From Rhabditophanes sp. KR3021 (Eukaryota; Nematoda; Chromadorea; Rhabditida; Alloionematidae): a stretch of DNA of 64,000 nucleotides. The number at the start of each line of letters is the position of its first letter. Within the stretch, counting starts at the first letter, position 1. The notes under the pieces were generated by a model. It worked only from the letters and a program-made list of their open reading frames with translations, did not search any database and was not told the DNA's origin. Position numbers and translations under genes: made by a program. Location of the stretch: the NCBI GenBank assembly GCA_963281155.1, contig CAUJLY010000002.1, positions 2,604,001 through 2,668,000 on the forward strand, in the 5' to 3' direction. Below, piece by piece: positions 16,928-34,164 of this stretch.

Positions 16928-17929
16928 TTAATACCCAGGAGCAGTCCTTGGTACTGGACAGTGTGAACAACCGCCAAAGTTTGATCCAGGAGCTCCCATT
17001 ATACCCTGGGCCCCATCAATTCCTTGTTTTCCATTGGGTCCAGGATTTCCTTTAATTCCGTTAACTCCGTCGATTCCTCGAGCACCAGGTAAACCATTTC
17101 TTCCTACAGCTCCAGGTAATCCACATGCTCCTTCATTTCCTCTTTTGCCAATTGGACCCTGCAAAGTTGAATTTAAATATATGGAGAATCAATTACAATT
17201 GGTCCATCAAAATTGACTTTTTGAATTCCATCTCTTCCATCTTTGCCTGGCAAACCGTCAATTCCTCTGGCTCCTGGAATTCCCGGCAAACCTCTTACTC
17301 CATTATCACCATCTATTCCAGCTTCACCCTACAAATTAAAAGTAGTAGTTTAAAATGTGTATGTAAAAGTTGTAGTAGGTAATTAAAAATAAAAAATGAA
17401 GTAATAAATTTACATCTCGGCCCGTAACTCCCGTTCTTCCTGAAACTCCCTTTGGCCCCGGATTTCCAGCAGGCCCAGGCTGGCCAACGGGGCAATCAAA
17501 GCAAAGAGAAATAAAAGGCCCTTGCTCAGCTTTCCCAATTTCAGTCAAATTATCAGATTGCATCGCTATTCCATAACTAAATCCGGGCATGCCTGGCCTT
17601 CCTGGAGGGCCTTGCTCTCCTGTAACTCCAACAGAACATCCACAACACGCAGGCTGACTATCAAATTGAGCAGTAGCTTCACGCTTTTTTCTACCACTAG
17701 TTTCACTTAATACCTGTGTTCTAACAATTTCCCGAAAAATACTATTGCTCTTTGTTTTGCAAAAGTGAATATCAACCTGCATCAAAGACTCCATCTGTTG
17801 GACATAATTATAGCACATAGGGACAGCAATAATTGAAAGCAAGACAGATGAAGAGGCAAACAGAACTACAAGAAAAGTTATCTTTCTCAATTTTTCAACC
17901 TTAATTATATCCTCATCAAGTTTAGCCAT
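16928..17929 (-). CDS. Nematode cuticle collagen
   Basis: Exons 17414-17929, 17218-17328 and 16928-17158 give 285 residues. Cuticle collagens are secreted, trimerised and crosslinked into the body-wall exoskeleton. Seen: the nematode cuticle collagen N-terminal domain with a membrane/signal-anchor segment (about residues 16-38), a subtilisin-type cleavage site RKKR at 80-83, a Cys pair (PACCGC), Gly-X-Y blocks interrupted near a CFDCPVG linker, a second Gly-X-Y run across exons 2 and 3, and a terminal Cys pair (GGCSHCP). The exon 2/3 junction gives one extra residue (IQK before GPI), a possible repeat interruption. A TATA box lies at 17978-17985. Confidence 0.95.
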
Positions 17930-27775: not shown

Positions 27776-28476
27776 CTTCCGATGTGAATTATAGAATGAT
27801 TTGTCTATAAAGCTTTGAAAAATATACGAAATAAACATCACAAATAAAATCATCGTATTTAATAAGAATAAGTATAAACAGCATTTTTCATCAAAGCATT
27901 ATTGTTCATTTAAATATGCATCAAGCACTCAAGCCAGTTTATGTGGATAAACTTACGTATGTCAAATTACAATTATCTTGCACATTGCATTAACTATCAA
28001 GAAACATAATGGCAATACTGAACCTAATTTAAGGACATATATTTACCGAATAAGCACTAATTTAAAACACATACTCAAAGCGCGATATGGTAAAAACTAA
28101 GATCCAATTAACAGATTTCACTTAAATAGCTACGCAATGATTAATAAAGTATAACTTACCTTTAATGCGACAATTTTATTTGCATTTTATAACTTCAATT
28201 TTACTTAATCAAAAACAATACAAAGACTATTTAGAATTCTTTTAATTTTGCATTGCAAAAATGACCATTATACATAGAATATATAAAATCAGCACGTAGG
28301 ACGTTTTGTATGTTAAACCAACAACAACGAGATTTTAATTATCTTCGGGACAACTTCAGTGCTTTTTTAATTATTTTTATAATAATAACTATATCAAACA
28401 ACAACTTTAATTTGTAATTCATTTTATTTATTCGAACAGTTTTTTATCAAACAAAAATGTTCGCCTATTCATATGA
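27776..28476. other. AT-rich intergenic sequence
   Basis: About 700 bases with no coding or RNA signal. Probably the 3' flank of the LETM gene. Confidence 0.4.
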
Positions 28477-30863
28477 TTAACTAGATTGCGCAACGACGGC
28501 AGCATGCAAATGCAACGAATCCTTTCCCCTGAACTTATCAGACACTTCAATCCATTGAACAAGCCTGTTACGCAAAGTCTCCTCGTTCTCATCCTCATTG
28601 AAGTTTATCTTTCTAATTTGAAGCTGAGTAATAACCTCTATTTCTTTCATCTCCGTAATTAATTCAGGACTTTCACGAAGTTTGTTATCTAATGTGGACA
28701 ATGCCAAGCTACGAGCTCTCAACTTTGTTAAGCCATTGAAGGGAGATACTTGGTGGAAGCGAAGTAGATGGTACTATAAAGATATGTACATAAGTTTTAC
28801 GATATTAGGAATATTTGATTACCATGTGAGCTGCATCTAAGGCTTCCAATTCGGGGACTATTACGTTCGTTGAATTAATTTGGGCAAAATTTATGGGCAA
28901 CTTGACAAAGTCTCCGTATTTCACTTTTGATGAAATTGCTGGGAAATGCTTAAATACTTATTAGTTTTTATTTTAATGGTCTTTTAGTTCTATTTGAATG
29001 AATAATGAATGTTTTTTGTAAATGTGAAAGGAAACTTTTTGATTACTTGTCTATGTTAGAAGAAACAGAAAGGAATGAACTAACAGACTTAGTAATGGCA
29101 GATTTACTTAATATTTCCAAATCGTCTTATTTGTTCGAAAAGAGAGTTTCTTCAAGCTTTAAGTGTATCTGTGTTTTTCTTCGAAGACAAGAGTGTTAGG
29201 AACCGTTTCGGTCACTTGATTCACCTTCAGAAAGCCTTGCGAACTTGATAGTAGAAGAAATGGATGAGCGTGGGAAAAGCTTTACAGAGGAGAAGGTGTA
29301 GTTGTTAAACCGATACGTCAATTTGAGGGCTTATAGGAAATTATATAATGACAAGCACAATAATATAATATTTAGACTTATTGCCTCGGCCACTTCTAAA
29401 CCTAAGTCCGAATGGTCAAAAGAAAGGCAAAGAACCAAAGAATTCATTGCATCGACTTAGTATAGTCTCGTTTAAACTTGGGGAGAGAGGAGCAGAAGAA
29501 TTGTTGGAAAATGGTCATAGTTTGGATCCAGTGCAACAAAAGAATTTAACGAGACTTACAAACGCAAGAGCGGGATCGAGGAAACAGACAAATAATAATC
29601 CGAGTTATGCCTACACCTCAAGGAGAATTGATAATCGAAATGAAGCTATGACTATGTTATCCCATTCCTGGAAACCGGAATACGACAAGGCATTTGAGGC
29701 ATCAGAAGCAATAAGAGCTCGTAGAACTACAGCTATTGGAAAGAAGACCGTAGACCCTTTGGAAGAAATCAAGAGACTTAATGATATTCGTCTTAGATCG
29801 AATAGAATAGCTAACCTTCACAGTTCCTTTTTGTTATGCATATTCATTATTACATTTTCATTTTTACTACATTCATATCTCATTATATTCATATGTATCC
29901 TTTATTACGGAATTATGATCAAGTAATGTGAAGGCAATACAGCTCATTTTGAAGTTAATTGATAGGATTGCTTAACTTATAGCATCAAAAGACACTTAGC
30001 ACTTACCTTTTCAGCAGCAACTTTCAAATTGTGAGACCAAAACTTCTTTCTTTGATTTTCATTCCAAAAATGTCTTGTTAATGTGATCCGTGGAGCGAAG
30101 ATACTGAAAAGAAGTAAGTTAGTACTCATAAGAAGCAGTACTTAATGTACATTGCTAGTGCAATTGGGTAAATTGCAAATGGTAAAGGAGCAATAATTGC
30201 TAAAGTAACAACTTTCACCAAGTCCTGTGAAGTCTGAAAAAACAAACAGCTATCAAATTATCAAATAAAAATAAGGATGCTTTTAATTTAAATCGTGCAT
30301 CCGTTTACCATTTGCCTTTTACACCAATATTTACACAAAAAAATGGACAAAACATATAAAAAAGATTGCAGCTTACGATATTAACATTATGGCTTCCCCA
30401 ATAACCGGAAACTCAATCAACACAAGAACTGTCAACATTTTGATGATGTCAGAAGGAAACTATATATAGGTAAATAAAAGGTAAATGATAAACGTTAGTT
30501 AGTTTGAATGACGTCAAAGCCAATTAAATTTACCTGTAAATAGACTTCCAGTTGTTCCTTTGTCATGGTCTCAATCTTGAGATGATCGCTTTTGAGGCCT
30601 TTACGGATGTGCCAGTAACACTTGAGGTCTGAAATACACCACTTACAACCGTCTATAATTTGGCGATGAAGGGCATATGTTTTGGGATGGTTTGCTTCTA
30701 GGTAATTTTCATATTTCTTCATTAAACCTATCTTTTCTTTCGGTTTTTCGGGTGTCATCTGTCTGCAGGATAATGACATGGCCATGGCATGTTTATAGGT
30801 ACCTAAATAATTTGGTTTGACAAGTGCCAAGGGACGTGTAGAAGAAAATCGTGACAATATCAT
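28477..30863 (-). CDS. LETM-domain mitochondrial membrane protein (LETMD1-like)
   Basis: Exons 30534-30863, 30151-30233 (or 30377-30459), 30007-30103, 28823-28948 and 28477-28773 join to about 310 residues. LETM proteins are mitochondrial inner-membrane proteins. Seen: an N-terminal basic presequence (MILSRFSSTRPLALVKPNYL), the helix with CKWCISDLKCYWHIRKGL and EQLEVYLQ, a hydrophobic exon, FAPRITLTRHFW (the LETMD1-type FPR-LL-RHFW motif) and a helical C-terminus (LRARSLALSTLDNKL; ENEETLRNRLVQW). Two 83-nt exons of equal phase lie in tandem for the membrane segment; only one can be used per mRNA without a frameshift. The 1058-bp intron 28949-30006 holds an antisense remnant. Confidence 0.82.
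29005..29926 (+). pseudogene. Decayed gene inside LETM intron, antisense
   Basis: Coding-like pieces follow each other in changing frames: FDYLSMLEETERNELTDLVM (from 29041), then SPSESLANLIVEEMDERGKS with a TAG after TEEKV, then LLNRYVNLRAYRKLYNDKHN. After a TATTTAG acceptor at about 29370 comes a long open stretch with GERGAEELLENGHSLDPVQQ and KRLNDIRLRSNRIANLHSS. The last part drifts into AT-rich hydrophobic codons. Family not recognised. The whole remnant lies inside the minus-strand LETM intron. Confidence 0.4.
30377..30459 (-). other. Alternative (mutually exclusive) exon of the LETM gene
   Basis: 83 nt between a TATATAG acceptor and a gtaagc donor, starting in phase 0 and ending in phase 2, exactly like the downstream exon 30151-30233. 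The peptides align without gaps: FPSDIIKMLTVLVLIEFPVI versus TSQDLVKVVTLAIIAPLPFA, sharing Asp4, Lys7, Thr10 and Pro18 with mostly conservative changes elsewhere. Either exon splices in frame from EVYLQ to IFAPRITL; both together shift the frame. Confidence 0.7.
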
Positions 30864-31252
30864 GTTGTAAAGGAAAGCCAGCTATCAATTAACAATAATT
30901 TAAAGACTCCCCTTTCAAAAGTTGTGGAGAAATGTCTGTTGTATGTATAGTTGTATAGTTGAGACGTATTGCAACTTTTTAGTTAAAAAATGATGCACTT
31001 TATTACAAATGTATCATTAATAATTTATCATCCATACTTTCTTTTGATGGATTATATGAACAGAATAAAAACGTGCTAATAAACATGAGATATAAAATAT
31101 TAAACAACAGAAATAATTATTATTTATTTCATCCAAAAAATTATAATCAAAATAAATAGTCCCTTTTTCTTAAATTTGGCACGTTCGCTATTATATGTAC
31201 AAATACCCAATAATCTAATTAAAATATAAATAAAAGTTCAATAGTCCAAGGC
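30864..31252. other. Intergenic, no gene seen
   Basis: 5' flank of the LETM gene and 3' flank of the PDZ gene, very AT-rich. Nothing supported. Confidence 0.4.
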
Positions 31253-32116
31253 TTAGACACTGATCTCGTCCGAGGCATCTTCGATAACAAGATTGGTAGT
31301 TTTTGGTTCCGTTGATGTGATATCTTCTTCTGTCACTGACAAAACAGAAGTCTTGTGACTGCTATTAACAGAGGGCAATGATGATGATGATGTGTGAGCT
31401 GATGTTGTCGAGATCGTTTCAGAACGAATTGAACTTCCGATGGCTGAGTCTTTCCCTGAAGATTCATTAGAACACATTGACATTCTCGAATCGGAATATT
31501 CAAAGTGAGTCTCCACACCCACAAAATTACTCTTCTCGTACTCTTCAATTTCCGCCAATTCCTTTAATTTGGCCTGCAACAACAAATCTAATTCATTTCT
31601 TCTTTTTGCTAATTCTATTCTTTTTTGCATATTCTCAAACAGCACCACAATCATCATCTCTGTCAACGACATTATCAGATCCCGCAGCTGTTCATGCGAA
31701 TAGTCAATGCAAATCTGTCCATTGATAGCGTAAATCACACTTCCGGAAACTAAACCAGCTTTGGCGGCAGGGCTGTTTGGCTTGATAGAGTCCACGAAAG
31801 TGATGGGTTCCTGAAATTACAACAATTAAATATAATCCCTCAAGTATTTTTAAATGAAATGCAATCTTAAATTAACTTCAAATTAAATCCGATCTTAAAC
31901 TAATTTTAAATAATTTAGAATCATACAAAAATTCATCTCCTAACTTACCACATCACTAAATCCACTTCTCTTTAATAAGTACGACTGAATAGTAAATCCA
32001 AAAGAATCCTTTTTGGATCTTTTTAGTAGGAGAGTTTGACGTCGATGACTTGATGAAGAATCGGCCTGAACTTGCTTGGAGCCATTTAATGTGTTGTCAA
32101 TCATTTTCATAAACAT
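31253..32116 (-). CDS. TAMALIN: TAMALIN/GRASP-like PDZ scaffold protein
   Basis: Exons 31949-32116 and 31253-31810 (138-bp intron) give 241 residues. TAMALIN (GRASP) and CYTIP link receptors to ARF guanine-exchange factors of the cytohesin family. The PDZ domain spans residues about 25-115: LLLKRSKKDSFGFTIQSYLL, then EPITFVDSIKPNSPAAKAGL and the VNG-like AINGQICIDYSHEQL helix. A coiled coil follows (RIELAKRRNELDLLLQAKLK), as in TAMALIN, then a long Ser/Thr-rich tail. The last residues (EISV) form a hydrophobic-X-hydrophobic PDZ ligand, matching the C-terminal ligand of TAMALIN. Confidence 0.8.
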
Positions 32117-34164
32117 TGTTCCTTGTTTATATACTTTTCTCAGCTTTTAGTGTTGAATATGTATAAGCTGTATGTACCTGATATTTTTAGCTAAAATAGA
32201 AACAAAATTTAAATATCTAAATAAAATAAGGCTGGCAGGGAAAAACGAATAGTAAGAATGTGAATCACTTAGATATGTATAAAATAGTTGTTTTCACTAA
32301 AAAATAAAGTGGTCGTCAATGGTAGAGGGCCTTTTTATGGGGCCAATTTGATAACAAATATATAGTTTAAAAGGAGATTGATTACAATTTGTTTTGGTTT
32401 TAATGTCGAAATGCGAATATAAAAAAGGTATAAGGGTATATAAGGAAGGTGTGTATGGATACTAATATTGTGATATACATATACCTGGCAGGGGTCTTTA
32501 AAATGCTAAAAGATAAAACCTTGGTGTGTTTCGATTTTTTGTTTGCTAGTGTTTGGTTTTTATAAATAACAGAGGTAAGGTCACTTTCACTCTGGTTAAA
32601 GGGTAAAAGATATGGGAACAACAAAAGAAATAATAACATGTTTTCCTTATATATAGATAAATATAGATGGGCATGTACAAAACATAAGTATAAAAAGTTT
32701 TGAAAGTCTAAAAAATTTCTTGGATGATAAGCACAAAAAGTTGGTTGGATGATAAGTATAGAAGTTGGTTGCATTTTAAGTCTTAATTACGAAACGATAC
32801 CACTACACATAACACTTACTTACTTACATCACCAAATTATTTCTAGAGACGAAATAAGAAAAAGGGTTGATTGGCTTAATAATAATATAGATAGATACTT
32901 AATTTCATTATATATTCTAAAAAAGGATGACGAAACAGTACACAATAAAAAATGCATGTAGATGTACCATCTCAAAAATATTATATAATATCTATTTCTA
33001 AGGTTCGTTAATATCTTATCATCATCATATGGAAGTCATTGGTGAATTGTTAGTTGGGTTGTGGTTGGTTCGTACATCTCCAAGACATAAATTTCATTCA
33101 CCCCCAAAACATACATCAATCGAAGATGTTGTAAGAGACCAAAAAATAAGTTTACAAAATGGTACATCTTTTATTGGTAGTAATAGTAAGTAGTTTTGTT
33201 GTTGGTATATAAAAACCTGATGCACATACTATTTATTTCATACTTTTCCATTCTTTTTCATACTATATATAGATGACTGCGCATGCATTAAATACATTAC
33301 AATAAATATATTTCAATTGCTCCAGGCTAAATTATTGAAACTTGTTGTATAAAGGTGTTTCCTTCACTGTTTTCACACCATTTTTCAATTCATCATTCTT
33401 TGTTTGGAAAGAATGCTATTTTTTGTACTCTTATCATTACCTCTAATACAATTAGGTTCTTTTTCTTATTTGATTCCTCTTTTTCTTACGTCGGTTTTCT
33501 TCTAACATTAGTTGGTTGAGTAGCCATGATATGTTGTACCCAAACTAATAAGTATTTATGTTTTACATTTTTGATGAGAAAGTTGCAAAAAACAATGACA
33601 CATCACATCGACAAATAATAAATAAATAATATATTACTACTATGAAAGGAAAGCAATTCAGCTGTTTTTACAAAGCCAACATCCTAACACACCCATCAAT
33701 CAACCGCGGTAATAATAATCAGAAAAATGCACAACATATACAACAATTATTGTTAAAATATTACACTAAAAATAATTTATACTAATAGTTACTTATATGG
33801 CTAAACATACCACATCTTCTGAAAAAGGACGATCAAAAAAGTTGGGTATTCTCGAAAGCCTTCCCCCCTATAGAATACTCATACACCGATACACCAAATG
33901 ATCACCTTAATGTCACATAATATAACTAATATATCTAATATATTAGAAGTGTAAGTATGCACAATGTACATAGTAATAATAAATTAATAATAGAGAGGGT
34001 AGCTAAGCAATTTGGGATGTTTTTTTGATGGATAGTTAATAGCTGCCATCTACTGGCACATCAAAAGTGTTAGTTAATTTACCGCAATGAATCAACTGCA
34101 CAAAAAAGAAGGCGCACAAATAAGGTCAACGGCAGTGTAAACTTAATTATGAAATTAAAATTTG
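32117..34164. other. Long gene-free stretch
   Basis: About 2 kb, the longest region here without a gene. Short chance frames only. It is rich in TA/AAT runs (for example near 33.62 and 33.93 kb) with pyrimidine-rich patches at 33.36-33.50 kb. It may hold the upstream regulatory DNA of the divergent PDZ and MIG-18-like genes. No tRNA or other RNA gene is evident by eye. Confidence 0.45.

What the first reader, a model, noticed from the sequence alone, without database searches (positions are those of the whole stretch)
30151..30459. Mutually exclusive exon pair in a mitochondrial LETM-domain gene
Two adjacent exons are both exactly 83 nt, both start in phase 0 and end in phase 2, and encode alignable membrane-segment peptides (shared Asp4, Lys7, Thr10, Pro18). 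Either one joins EVYLQ to IFAPRITL in frame; using both shifts the frame. This is the signature of tandem exon duplication with exclusive choice, giving two forms of a mitochondrial inner-membrane protein that differ in one helix. I know of no such pair in LETMD1-type genes.
Basis: partly seen in the sequence, partly recalled or inferred. Interest (0 to 1): 0.75.

Follow-up and report, generated by a model that had tools for sequence, protein, structure and literature searches.

The report
Either-or exon pair in worm LETMD1
A roundworm gene for a mitochondrial LETM-family protein carries two interchangeable 83-base exons, only one of which can be used at a time without breaking the protein, and the surrounding RNA is predicted to fold in two competing ways that could make that choice; no transcript data were available to show that both are used.

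Summary
On the minus strand, exons A (30459-30377) and B (30233-30151) are both 83 nt with GT/AG borders and the same phases. Either completes a 310-aa LETM-domain protein; both together, or neither, give an early stop. The organism is Rhabditophanes or very close: the public KR3021 protein equals exons 1+4+5 of this gene from Met27 and skips A, B and exon 3. B is the ancestral type, as in three Strongyloides proteins. A is diverged (6/28 residues shared with B, 10/28 with S. venezuelensis) but keeps Asp4, Lys7 and Pro18; 0 of 225 other open 83-nt cassettes resemble B as well. Part of the likeness is hydrophobicity, and no duplication is visible in the DNA. New here: one intron segment can pair either with the region before exon A or with exon B, a predicted switch not matched in 1,049 genomic controls, though tested after the fact. 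A UbiA gene taken for coq-2 in the same genome shows the tandem exon layout published for helminths. Best reading: a real mutually exclusive pair, a new member of a known kind. Use of A and conservation elsewhere are untested.

The parts
30534..30863 (-). Exon 1 (330 nt, ATG at 30863)
   Evidence: Open from ATG to donor GTAAAT; from Met27 on it is part of the public KR3021 protein P0003
30377..30459 (-). Exon A, 83 nt, phase 0 to 2: FPSDIIKMLTVLVLIEFPVIGEAIMLI(S)
   Evidence: AG/GT borders, open, in frame to exon 3; PF07766 27.5 bits with A
30151..30233 (-). Exon B, 83 nt, phase 0 to 2, ancestral type: TSQDLVKVVTLAIIAPLPFAIYPIALA(I)
   Evidence: Aligns without gaps to Strongyloides proteins P0004 and P0005 and reads alike in P0006; PF07766 38 bits with B
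30007..30103 (-). Exon 3 (97 nt), IFAPRITLTRHFW...AAEK
   Evidence: Borders and frame; aligns to Strongyloides
28823..28948 (-). Exon 4 (126 nt), HFPAISS...
   Evidence: Present in P0003 with this border
28477..28773 (-). Exon 5 (297 nt incl. stop), YHLLRFHQVS...
   Evidence: Present in P0003
30469..30494 (-). Selector-like element S1 in intron 1, just downstream of an ACTAACTAAC branch-like motif and upstream of the A acceptor
   Evidence: Inverted complement of the intron-2 element; prediction
30297..30331 (-). Docking-like element D in intron 2 (143 nt), contains GCAAATGGTAAA at 30315-30304
   Evidence: Can pair with S1 or with exon B; prediction
30163..30208 (-). Selector-like element S2 inside exon B, contains TTTACCATTTGC at 30186-30175
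   Evidence: 12-base perfect complement to D within a longer gapped inverted match; prediction

Best explanation
A and B are a mutually exclusive exon pair in a LETMD1-type gene of a Rhabditophanes nematode. Each transcript that makes full-length protein contains exactly one of them, giving two 310-aa LETM-domain proteins that differ in one 28-residue hydrophobic segment. B gives the ancestral form. A gives a diverged form that keeps Asp4, Lys7 and Pro18 and adds two acidic residues (Glu16, Glu22) that B and the three Strongyloides proteins lack. Exclusivity rests at least on frame: double inclusion or double skipping gives an early stop well upstream of the last junction, so such mRNAs should be removed by nonsense-mediated decay. 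The choice itself may be made by RNA structure: element D in the intron between the exons pairs either with S1, covering the region before the A acceptor (A hidden, B used), or with S2 inside B (B hidden, A used). Shown by sequence: anatomy, frame logic, homology of B, the complementarities. Inferred: use of A, decay of the other products, the RNA switch, and any difference in function.
For: Anatomy and frame. Both forms pass the PF07766 cut-off of 25.3; as 310-aa proteins 46.8 bits for A and 57.3 for B. With the segment masked in the 170-aa version no match remains. A resembles the S. venezuelensis segment (10/28; 0.015% of full shuffles and 1.1% of class-preserving shuffles score as well). 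0 of 225 other cassettes resemble B as well. A's G+C equals B's (36%) against 27% in introns 1 and 2. In the same genome a UbiA-family gene that I take for coq-2 has two tandem exons of 143 and 134 nt in the same phase with a 156-nt intron between, the layout of the experimentally established coq-2 pair of helminths (PMC7434440, passages); I did not align them to the published exons. RNA: intron 2 against exon B inverted match 45, reached by 3 of 10,000 shuffles; intron 1 against intron 2 match 41, reached by 10 of 5,000. At random genomic places 0.33% and 0.32% reach these, both together 0 of 20,000. Folding puts D with S1 until exon B is transcribed and with S2 afterwards, and back mostly to S1 if the exon-1 donor region is kept unpaired; 0 of 1,049 genomic controls show a double pairing as strong.
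Against: No transcript evidence for A or B. The three relatives with this segment (P0004-P0006) are B-type; a fragment search with both forms found only P0003, which has neither. Codon usage does not separate A from noncoding cassettes (26 of 119 score as high; 15 of 119 for B). 1 of 9 shuffled versions of A scored above A in Pfam (30.3 against 27.5 bits). Holding hydrophobic positions fixed, 8.4% of shuffles reach A's score and 18.7% its identity to B. A/B ranks 25th of 11,316 tandem pairs by likeness. The RNA-switch tests were devised after seeing the fold, and 21 element pairs were scanned. The full-length equilibrium fold has essentially no D:S1 pairing, so on its own it would predict the ancestral exon B hidden. 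The coq-2 pair shows no unusual complementarity (10 element pairs), so such structure is not a general mark of exclusive exons in this species. There is no covariation test.
Confidence: 0.7

Rival explanations
1. A is a non-productive (poison) or decoy exon: it is spliced in, but its main effect is to lower or delay expression, for instance by double inclusion with B and decay, and the A protein does not matter.
For: A+B gives a stop inside B, 287 nt upstream of the last junction. Each exon has one splice site away from the commonest types (A acceptor ATATATAG, B donor GTACAT), though exon 5 of this gene also uses an acceptor ending TATAG. No A-type protein was found.
Against: A alone is fully in frame and keeps Asp4, Lys7 and Pro18; a poison exon needs neither an open frame of exactly B's length nor LETM-like residues.
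Confidence: 0.13
2. A is not an exon: a chance open stretch in an intron, its hydrophobic T-rich codons mimicking B.
For: An open 83-nt AG..GT cassette is expected in about 5-8% of shuffled intervals of this size; class-preserving shuffles reach its likeness to B in 8.4%; codon usage is uninformative.
Against: 0 of 225 real cassettes match B as well; identity is higher to S. venezuelensis (10/28) than to B (6/28); G+C is exon-like.
Confidence: 0.13
3. A is a relic: a former alternative exon now decaying after loss of use.
For: High divergence from B and an acceptor without a pyrimidine run.
Against: No stop, no frameshift and intact GT/AG although third positions are near background (7/27 identical).
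Confidence: 0.04

Closest known systems
coq-2 exons 6a/6e of C. elegans and parasitic helminths (PMC7434440; passages seen)
   Same: Nematode mitochondrial protein (by established knowledge); two tandem internal exons that swap a core segment, one of them like the exon of all eukaryotes and one distinct. The apparent copy in this genome has exons of 143 and 134 nt in one phase, out of frame if both are used (arithmetic).
   Different: A polyprenyltransferase, not a LETM protein; the published pair is backed by RNA and exon-deletion mutants; no unusual RNA pairing in this genome's copy.
Docking-selector RNA structures (Dscam exon 6, 14-3-3zeta, Mhc, MRP1; bidirectional srp; PMC6071210, outline, introduction and discussion read)
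   Same: One element with two competing partners around exclusive exons.
   Different: Here the shared element lies in the intron between the two exons and one partner is inside an exon; no conservation evidence; the pairing is predicted to hide, not promote, the nearby exon.
LETM1 (own copy in L008; mouse LETM1, PMC5037442, passages seen)
   Same: Same Pfam domain; Asp4 and Pro18 in register.
   Different: The segment lies within one exon, with no alternative seen in the stretch read; it carries Glu at position 21 (by spacing, mouse E221), where A has Glu at 22 and B has none.
unc-32 exclusive exons of C. elegans (PMC3585155; title and start of abstract in listings only)
   Same: Nematode mutually exclusive exons.
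   Different: Choice regulated by the RNA-binding protein UNC-75 in neurons; unrelated gene.

Membership tests
Mutually exclusive exon pair | Adjacent internal exons with same phase and matching length | tested here: met
   83 and 83 nt, phase 0 to 2
Mutually exclusive exon pair | Either one keeps the frame; both or neither break it (where lengths are not multiples of three) | tested here: met
Mutually exclusive exon pair | Homologous peptides (for the duplicated kind) | tested here: inconclusive
   6/28 with B, 10/28 with S. venezuelensis; 0 of 225 cassettes as good, but 8.4% by class-preserving shuffle
Mutually exclusive exon pair | Transcripts contain exactly one of the two | not testable with these tools
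   No RNA reads; the one database protein found for this gene contains neither
Mutually exclusive exon pair | Both exons conserved in relatives | not testable with these tools
   No related nematode genome available to search; three Strongyloides proteins show the B type only
LETM1_RBD family (PF07766) | Score over curated cut-off | tested here: met
   46.8 and 57.3 bits against 25.3
LETMD1 subfamily | LETM-domain gene distinct from LETM1, without the LETM1 glutamate in the segment | tested here: inconclusive
   A LETM1 is elsewhere (L008); this protein is 310 aa; B lacks the Glu, A has one a residue further on; likeness of the C-terminus to human LETMD1 is recalled, not tested
Docking-selector regulated exons | One element with two competing partners | tested here: met
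   (prediction on one sequence)
Docking-selector regulated exons | Pairings conserved with covariation across species | not testable with these tools
   No related DNA available

The most novel reading that the evidence does not exclude
A bistable pre-mRNA switch decides, kinetically or through U1 binding at exon 1, whether a LETMD1-type mitochondrial protein carries its usual segment or one with glutamates resembling the transport helix of LETM1, so that one gene alternates between a LETMD1-like and a LETM1-like protein, perhaps with oxygen or life stage as coq-2 does.
Probability: 0.12. Interest if true: 0.75.

Novelty: new member of a known kind. Interest (0 to 1): 0.47.

Why it matters
If A is used, this would be another mitochondrial protein, besides COQ-2, that nematodes retune by exclusive exons, and a natural swap of exactly the segment that is disputed in LETM biology (membrane helix or not, glutamate or not). 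The predicted two-state RNA fold would also be a compact case for testing how pre-mRNA structure enforces exclusive choice in nematodes. The public gene model currently misses the whole segment.

Tried and rejected
Structure prediction on three Strongyloides proteins gave a model of mean pLDDT 38.5: not used. A PDB search by sequence gave one match up to E 10, a mitoribosomal protein at E 1.2, no LETM relative. Codon-usage scoring did not discriminate. The 60 short introns collected were chosen with a score that favours consensus sites, so they are only a rough guide to splice-site strength. Rfam gave nothing over gathering thresholds at 28400-32200. NCBIfam gave only a match far below its cut-off. 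Considered and dropped: a repeat or transposon in intron 2 (its only match in the genome is itself; that search skips simple and very common words); an in-frame A+B protein (no frame-restoring GT seen near the A donor, and the alternative AG in B is 9 nt in; read by eye, not scanned); a duplicate of the gene (5 of 5 matches lie in this gene). A first reading of exon 4 with acceptor at ..CCCAG was wrong by phase; P0003 shows the border at ..TTTAAG, so the query and the first row lacked four residues. In one search exon 3 was taken one base too long; one search has the right border.

Full report
What is there. The gene lies on the minus strand: exon 1 30863-30534, A 30459-30377, B 30233-30151, exon 3 30103-30007, exon 4 28948-28823, exon 5 28773-28477. 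A and B are both 83 nt with GT/AG borders and identical phases. Exon 1 + A + 3 + 4 + 5 and exon 1 + B + 3 + 4 + 5 are each 933 nt, in frame to the same stop, 310 aa. A+B stops at nt 430, inside B and 287 nt upstream of the last junction; skipping both stops at nt 373 in exon 3. By the general rule for nonsense-mediated decay (established knowledge) both are expected decay targets.

Whose gene. A protein search found 3 relatives (one from Rhabditophanes sp. KR3021, two from Strongyloides) and a profile search one more from Strongyloides (4 in all). The Rhabditophanes protein P0003 is letter for letter exons 1+4+5 of this gene from Met27 on, so the window is this species or a very close one; NCBI places it in Alloionematidae, Strongyloidoidea. 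That public model skips A, B and exon 3, an in-frame skip; I take it for a prediction artefact, but a third isoform is not excluded. A family search of the genome found one LETM1-type gene, whose corresponding segment lies within one exon; that search did not ring on the present gene, which is split over exons, so it may miss others. A search with the A-form protein gave 5 matches, all in this gene.

Homology of the two exons. The Strongyloides segment reads TSSxLSKxLxxxVxAxxPxTIYPxxLAI in three proteins, and B is colinear with it. A shares 6/28 residues with B and 8/28, 7/28 and 10/28 with S. papillosus, S. stercoralis and S. venezuelensis. Shuffling all residues of A gives as good a score against B in 0.13% and against S. 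venezuelensis in 0.015% of cases. Holding hydrophobic and other positions fixed gives 8.4% against B, 3.1% and 4.3% against S. papillosus and S. stercoralis, and 1.1% against S. venezuelensis. Among registers -8 to +8 only zero scores high (25, next best 4). Pfam LETM1_RBD gives 27.5 bits with A and 38.0 with B. The masked segment gives no match, and nine shuffles gave 30.3, 16.9, 17.2, none, 15.0 (class-preserving) and 12.7, 18.9, 14.2, none (full) (9 of the 18 shuffles). DNA identity is 31/83, mostly at second codon positions (18/28; first 6/28, third 7/27), which I read as shared hydrophobicity. So the pair is either an old duplication or a convergent exon; common descent is likely from position, phase and the kept Asp4, Lys7 and Pro18, but not proven.

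Chance controls. Dinucleotide shuffles of the 300-nt interval between exon 1 and B hold an open 83-nt cassette in 7.6% (4.5% with intron composition). In real sequence there are 64 such cassettes in the window including A and B and 163 in twenty 10-kb pieces of contig 1. None of the 225 others reaches A's 27 against B (best 18 in the window, 6 outside). Against S. venezuelensis A scores 36 (best others 13 and 6), against own LETM1 20 (best others 17 and 4). In a broader scan of 11,316 tandem equal-length pairs in 266 kb, A/B ranks 25th by likeness; most pairs above it read as repeats within coding sequence, for example a collagen-like repeat at 17328/17158, but I did not check each. Codon usage is uninformative. 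G+C is 36% for A and B against 27% for introns 1 and 2 together.

Comparison gene. A UbiA-family gene of this genome that I take for coq-2 (L035; PF01040) has two tandem exons of 143 and 134 nt, same phase, 156 nt apart, encoding ATLNWGVLISW..YDTIYSQM and LTFNWGVILGY..YDTIYALQ. This is the layout published for helminth coq-2, where the choice switches quinone synthesis and inclusion of the special exon rises in stages that meet hypoxia (PMC7434440, passages). I did not align these exons to the published ones. If it is coq-2, exclusive exons in a mitochondrial protein are at home in this lineage.

A possible switch. Among 21 pairs of seven elements (exon 1 end, introns 1-3, A, B, exon 3), intron 2 with exon B (-44.0 kcal/mol, z -3.8) and intron 1 with intron 2 (-32.7, z -3.6) stand out; next are exon 1 end with A (z -2.3) and intron 3 with exon 3 (z -2.2). 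The two use the same part of intron 2, D (about 30331-30297). D contains 12 bases perfectly complementary to exon B at 30186-30175 (8 of 3,000 shuffles have one as long) within a longer gapped inverted match (3 of 10,000 as good), and matches intron 1 at S1 30494-30469 (10 of 5,000; duplex energy 2 of 3,000). At random genomic places with the same layout each match is reached in 0.33% and 0.32%, both in 0 of 20,000. Folding the growing transcript gives about 22 expected pairs between D and S1 until B is made, then about 25 between D and S2 and none with S1; keeping the exon-1 donor region unpaired, as U1 would, moves it back to S1 (19.4 against 2.7). A double-pairing measure of 26.9 was reached by 0 of 1,049 controls, highest 19.0, 8 at 15 or more (2,400 drawn, the rest not reached in the time limit); its two halves alone are reached by 1.8% and 1.3%. 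S1 lies just after an ACTAACTAAC motif (branch-like; recalled consensus) and before the A acceptor; S2 lies inside B. Each pairing should therefore hide one exon. These tests were designed after seeing the fold, rest on one sequence, and have no covariation support; and at full-length equilibrium the fold hides B, the ancestral exon, so some factor or kinetics would have to favour B. The whole 481-nt stretch folds at z -2.84.

What the swap would do. In this genome's LETM1 the segment reads SDLFRLVPFSVFVIVPFMELALP: Asp4, Pro18, Glu21 (my translation). In mouse LETM1 D204 and E221 have the same spacing; E221Q abolishes Ca2+ transport in cells, whereas D204N behaved like wild type in the passage seen (PMC5037442). 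A review notes that LETMD1 lacks this glutamate (N151) and has the proline (P148) (PMC7761412, passages). B has no acid after Asp4; A has Glu16 and Glu22, the latter one residue past the LETM1 position. This is a lead only. Hydropathy maxima are alike (2.27 and 2.32). Whether the segment crosses a membrane is disputed for mammalian LETMD1 (PMC10290150, passages).

Literature. No paper on exclusive exons in LETM genes was seen in the listings for 'mutually exclusive' + 'LETMD1' (6 papers) and 'mutually exclusive exon' + 'LETM1' (3 papers); 'mutually exclusive exon' + 'Strongyloides' gave 5 papers, among them the coq-2 paper. The library lacks most subscription papers. Whether the pair is listed in an exon catalogue that I did not search is unknown.

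Verdict. It is a new member of a known kind with an attractive, untested regulatory model.

Noticed in passing
L035 (G000:C3:1104800-1107300), minus strand: A UbiA-family gene, probably coq-2, with a tandem exon pair (143 and 134 nt) laid out like the exclusive pair known from helminths; if so, Rhabditophanes may keep the rhodoquinone switch.
   Followed up: partly
29369-29926, + strand: A 185-aa open frame nested antisense in the intron between exons 3 and 4; no Pfam family over its cut-off.
   Followed up: partly
30533-28949, - strand: The public KR3021 protein P0003 joins exon 1 directly to exon 4, in frame, dropping A/B and exon 3; probably a gene-model error that removes the LETM segment.
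   Followed up: yes
17328 and 17158, - strand: Collagen-like Gly-X-Y coding repeats that appear as a tandem cassette pair.
   Followed up: no
34427 and 34566, + strand: Two similar equal-length cassettes (77 nt) with cysteine-containing peptides score above A/B in the tandem scan; could be a repeated small domain.
   Followed up: no
L027 (G000:C1:8300001-8310000), 7138 and 6640, - strand: A tandem pair of similar 116-nt open cassettes with starts 498 nt apart, the best of the 266-kb scan; exclusive exons or a repeated domain not distinguished.
   Followed up: no
G000:C1:3690192-3690975 and 3724818-3725601: UbiA-family matches with identical scores in opposite orientation about 34 kb apart, as in an inverted duplication.
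   Followed up: no
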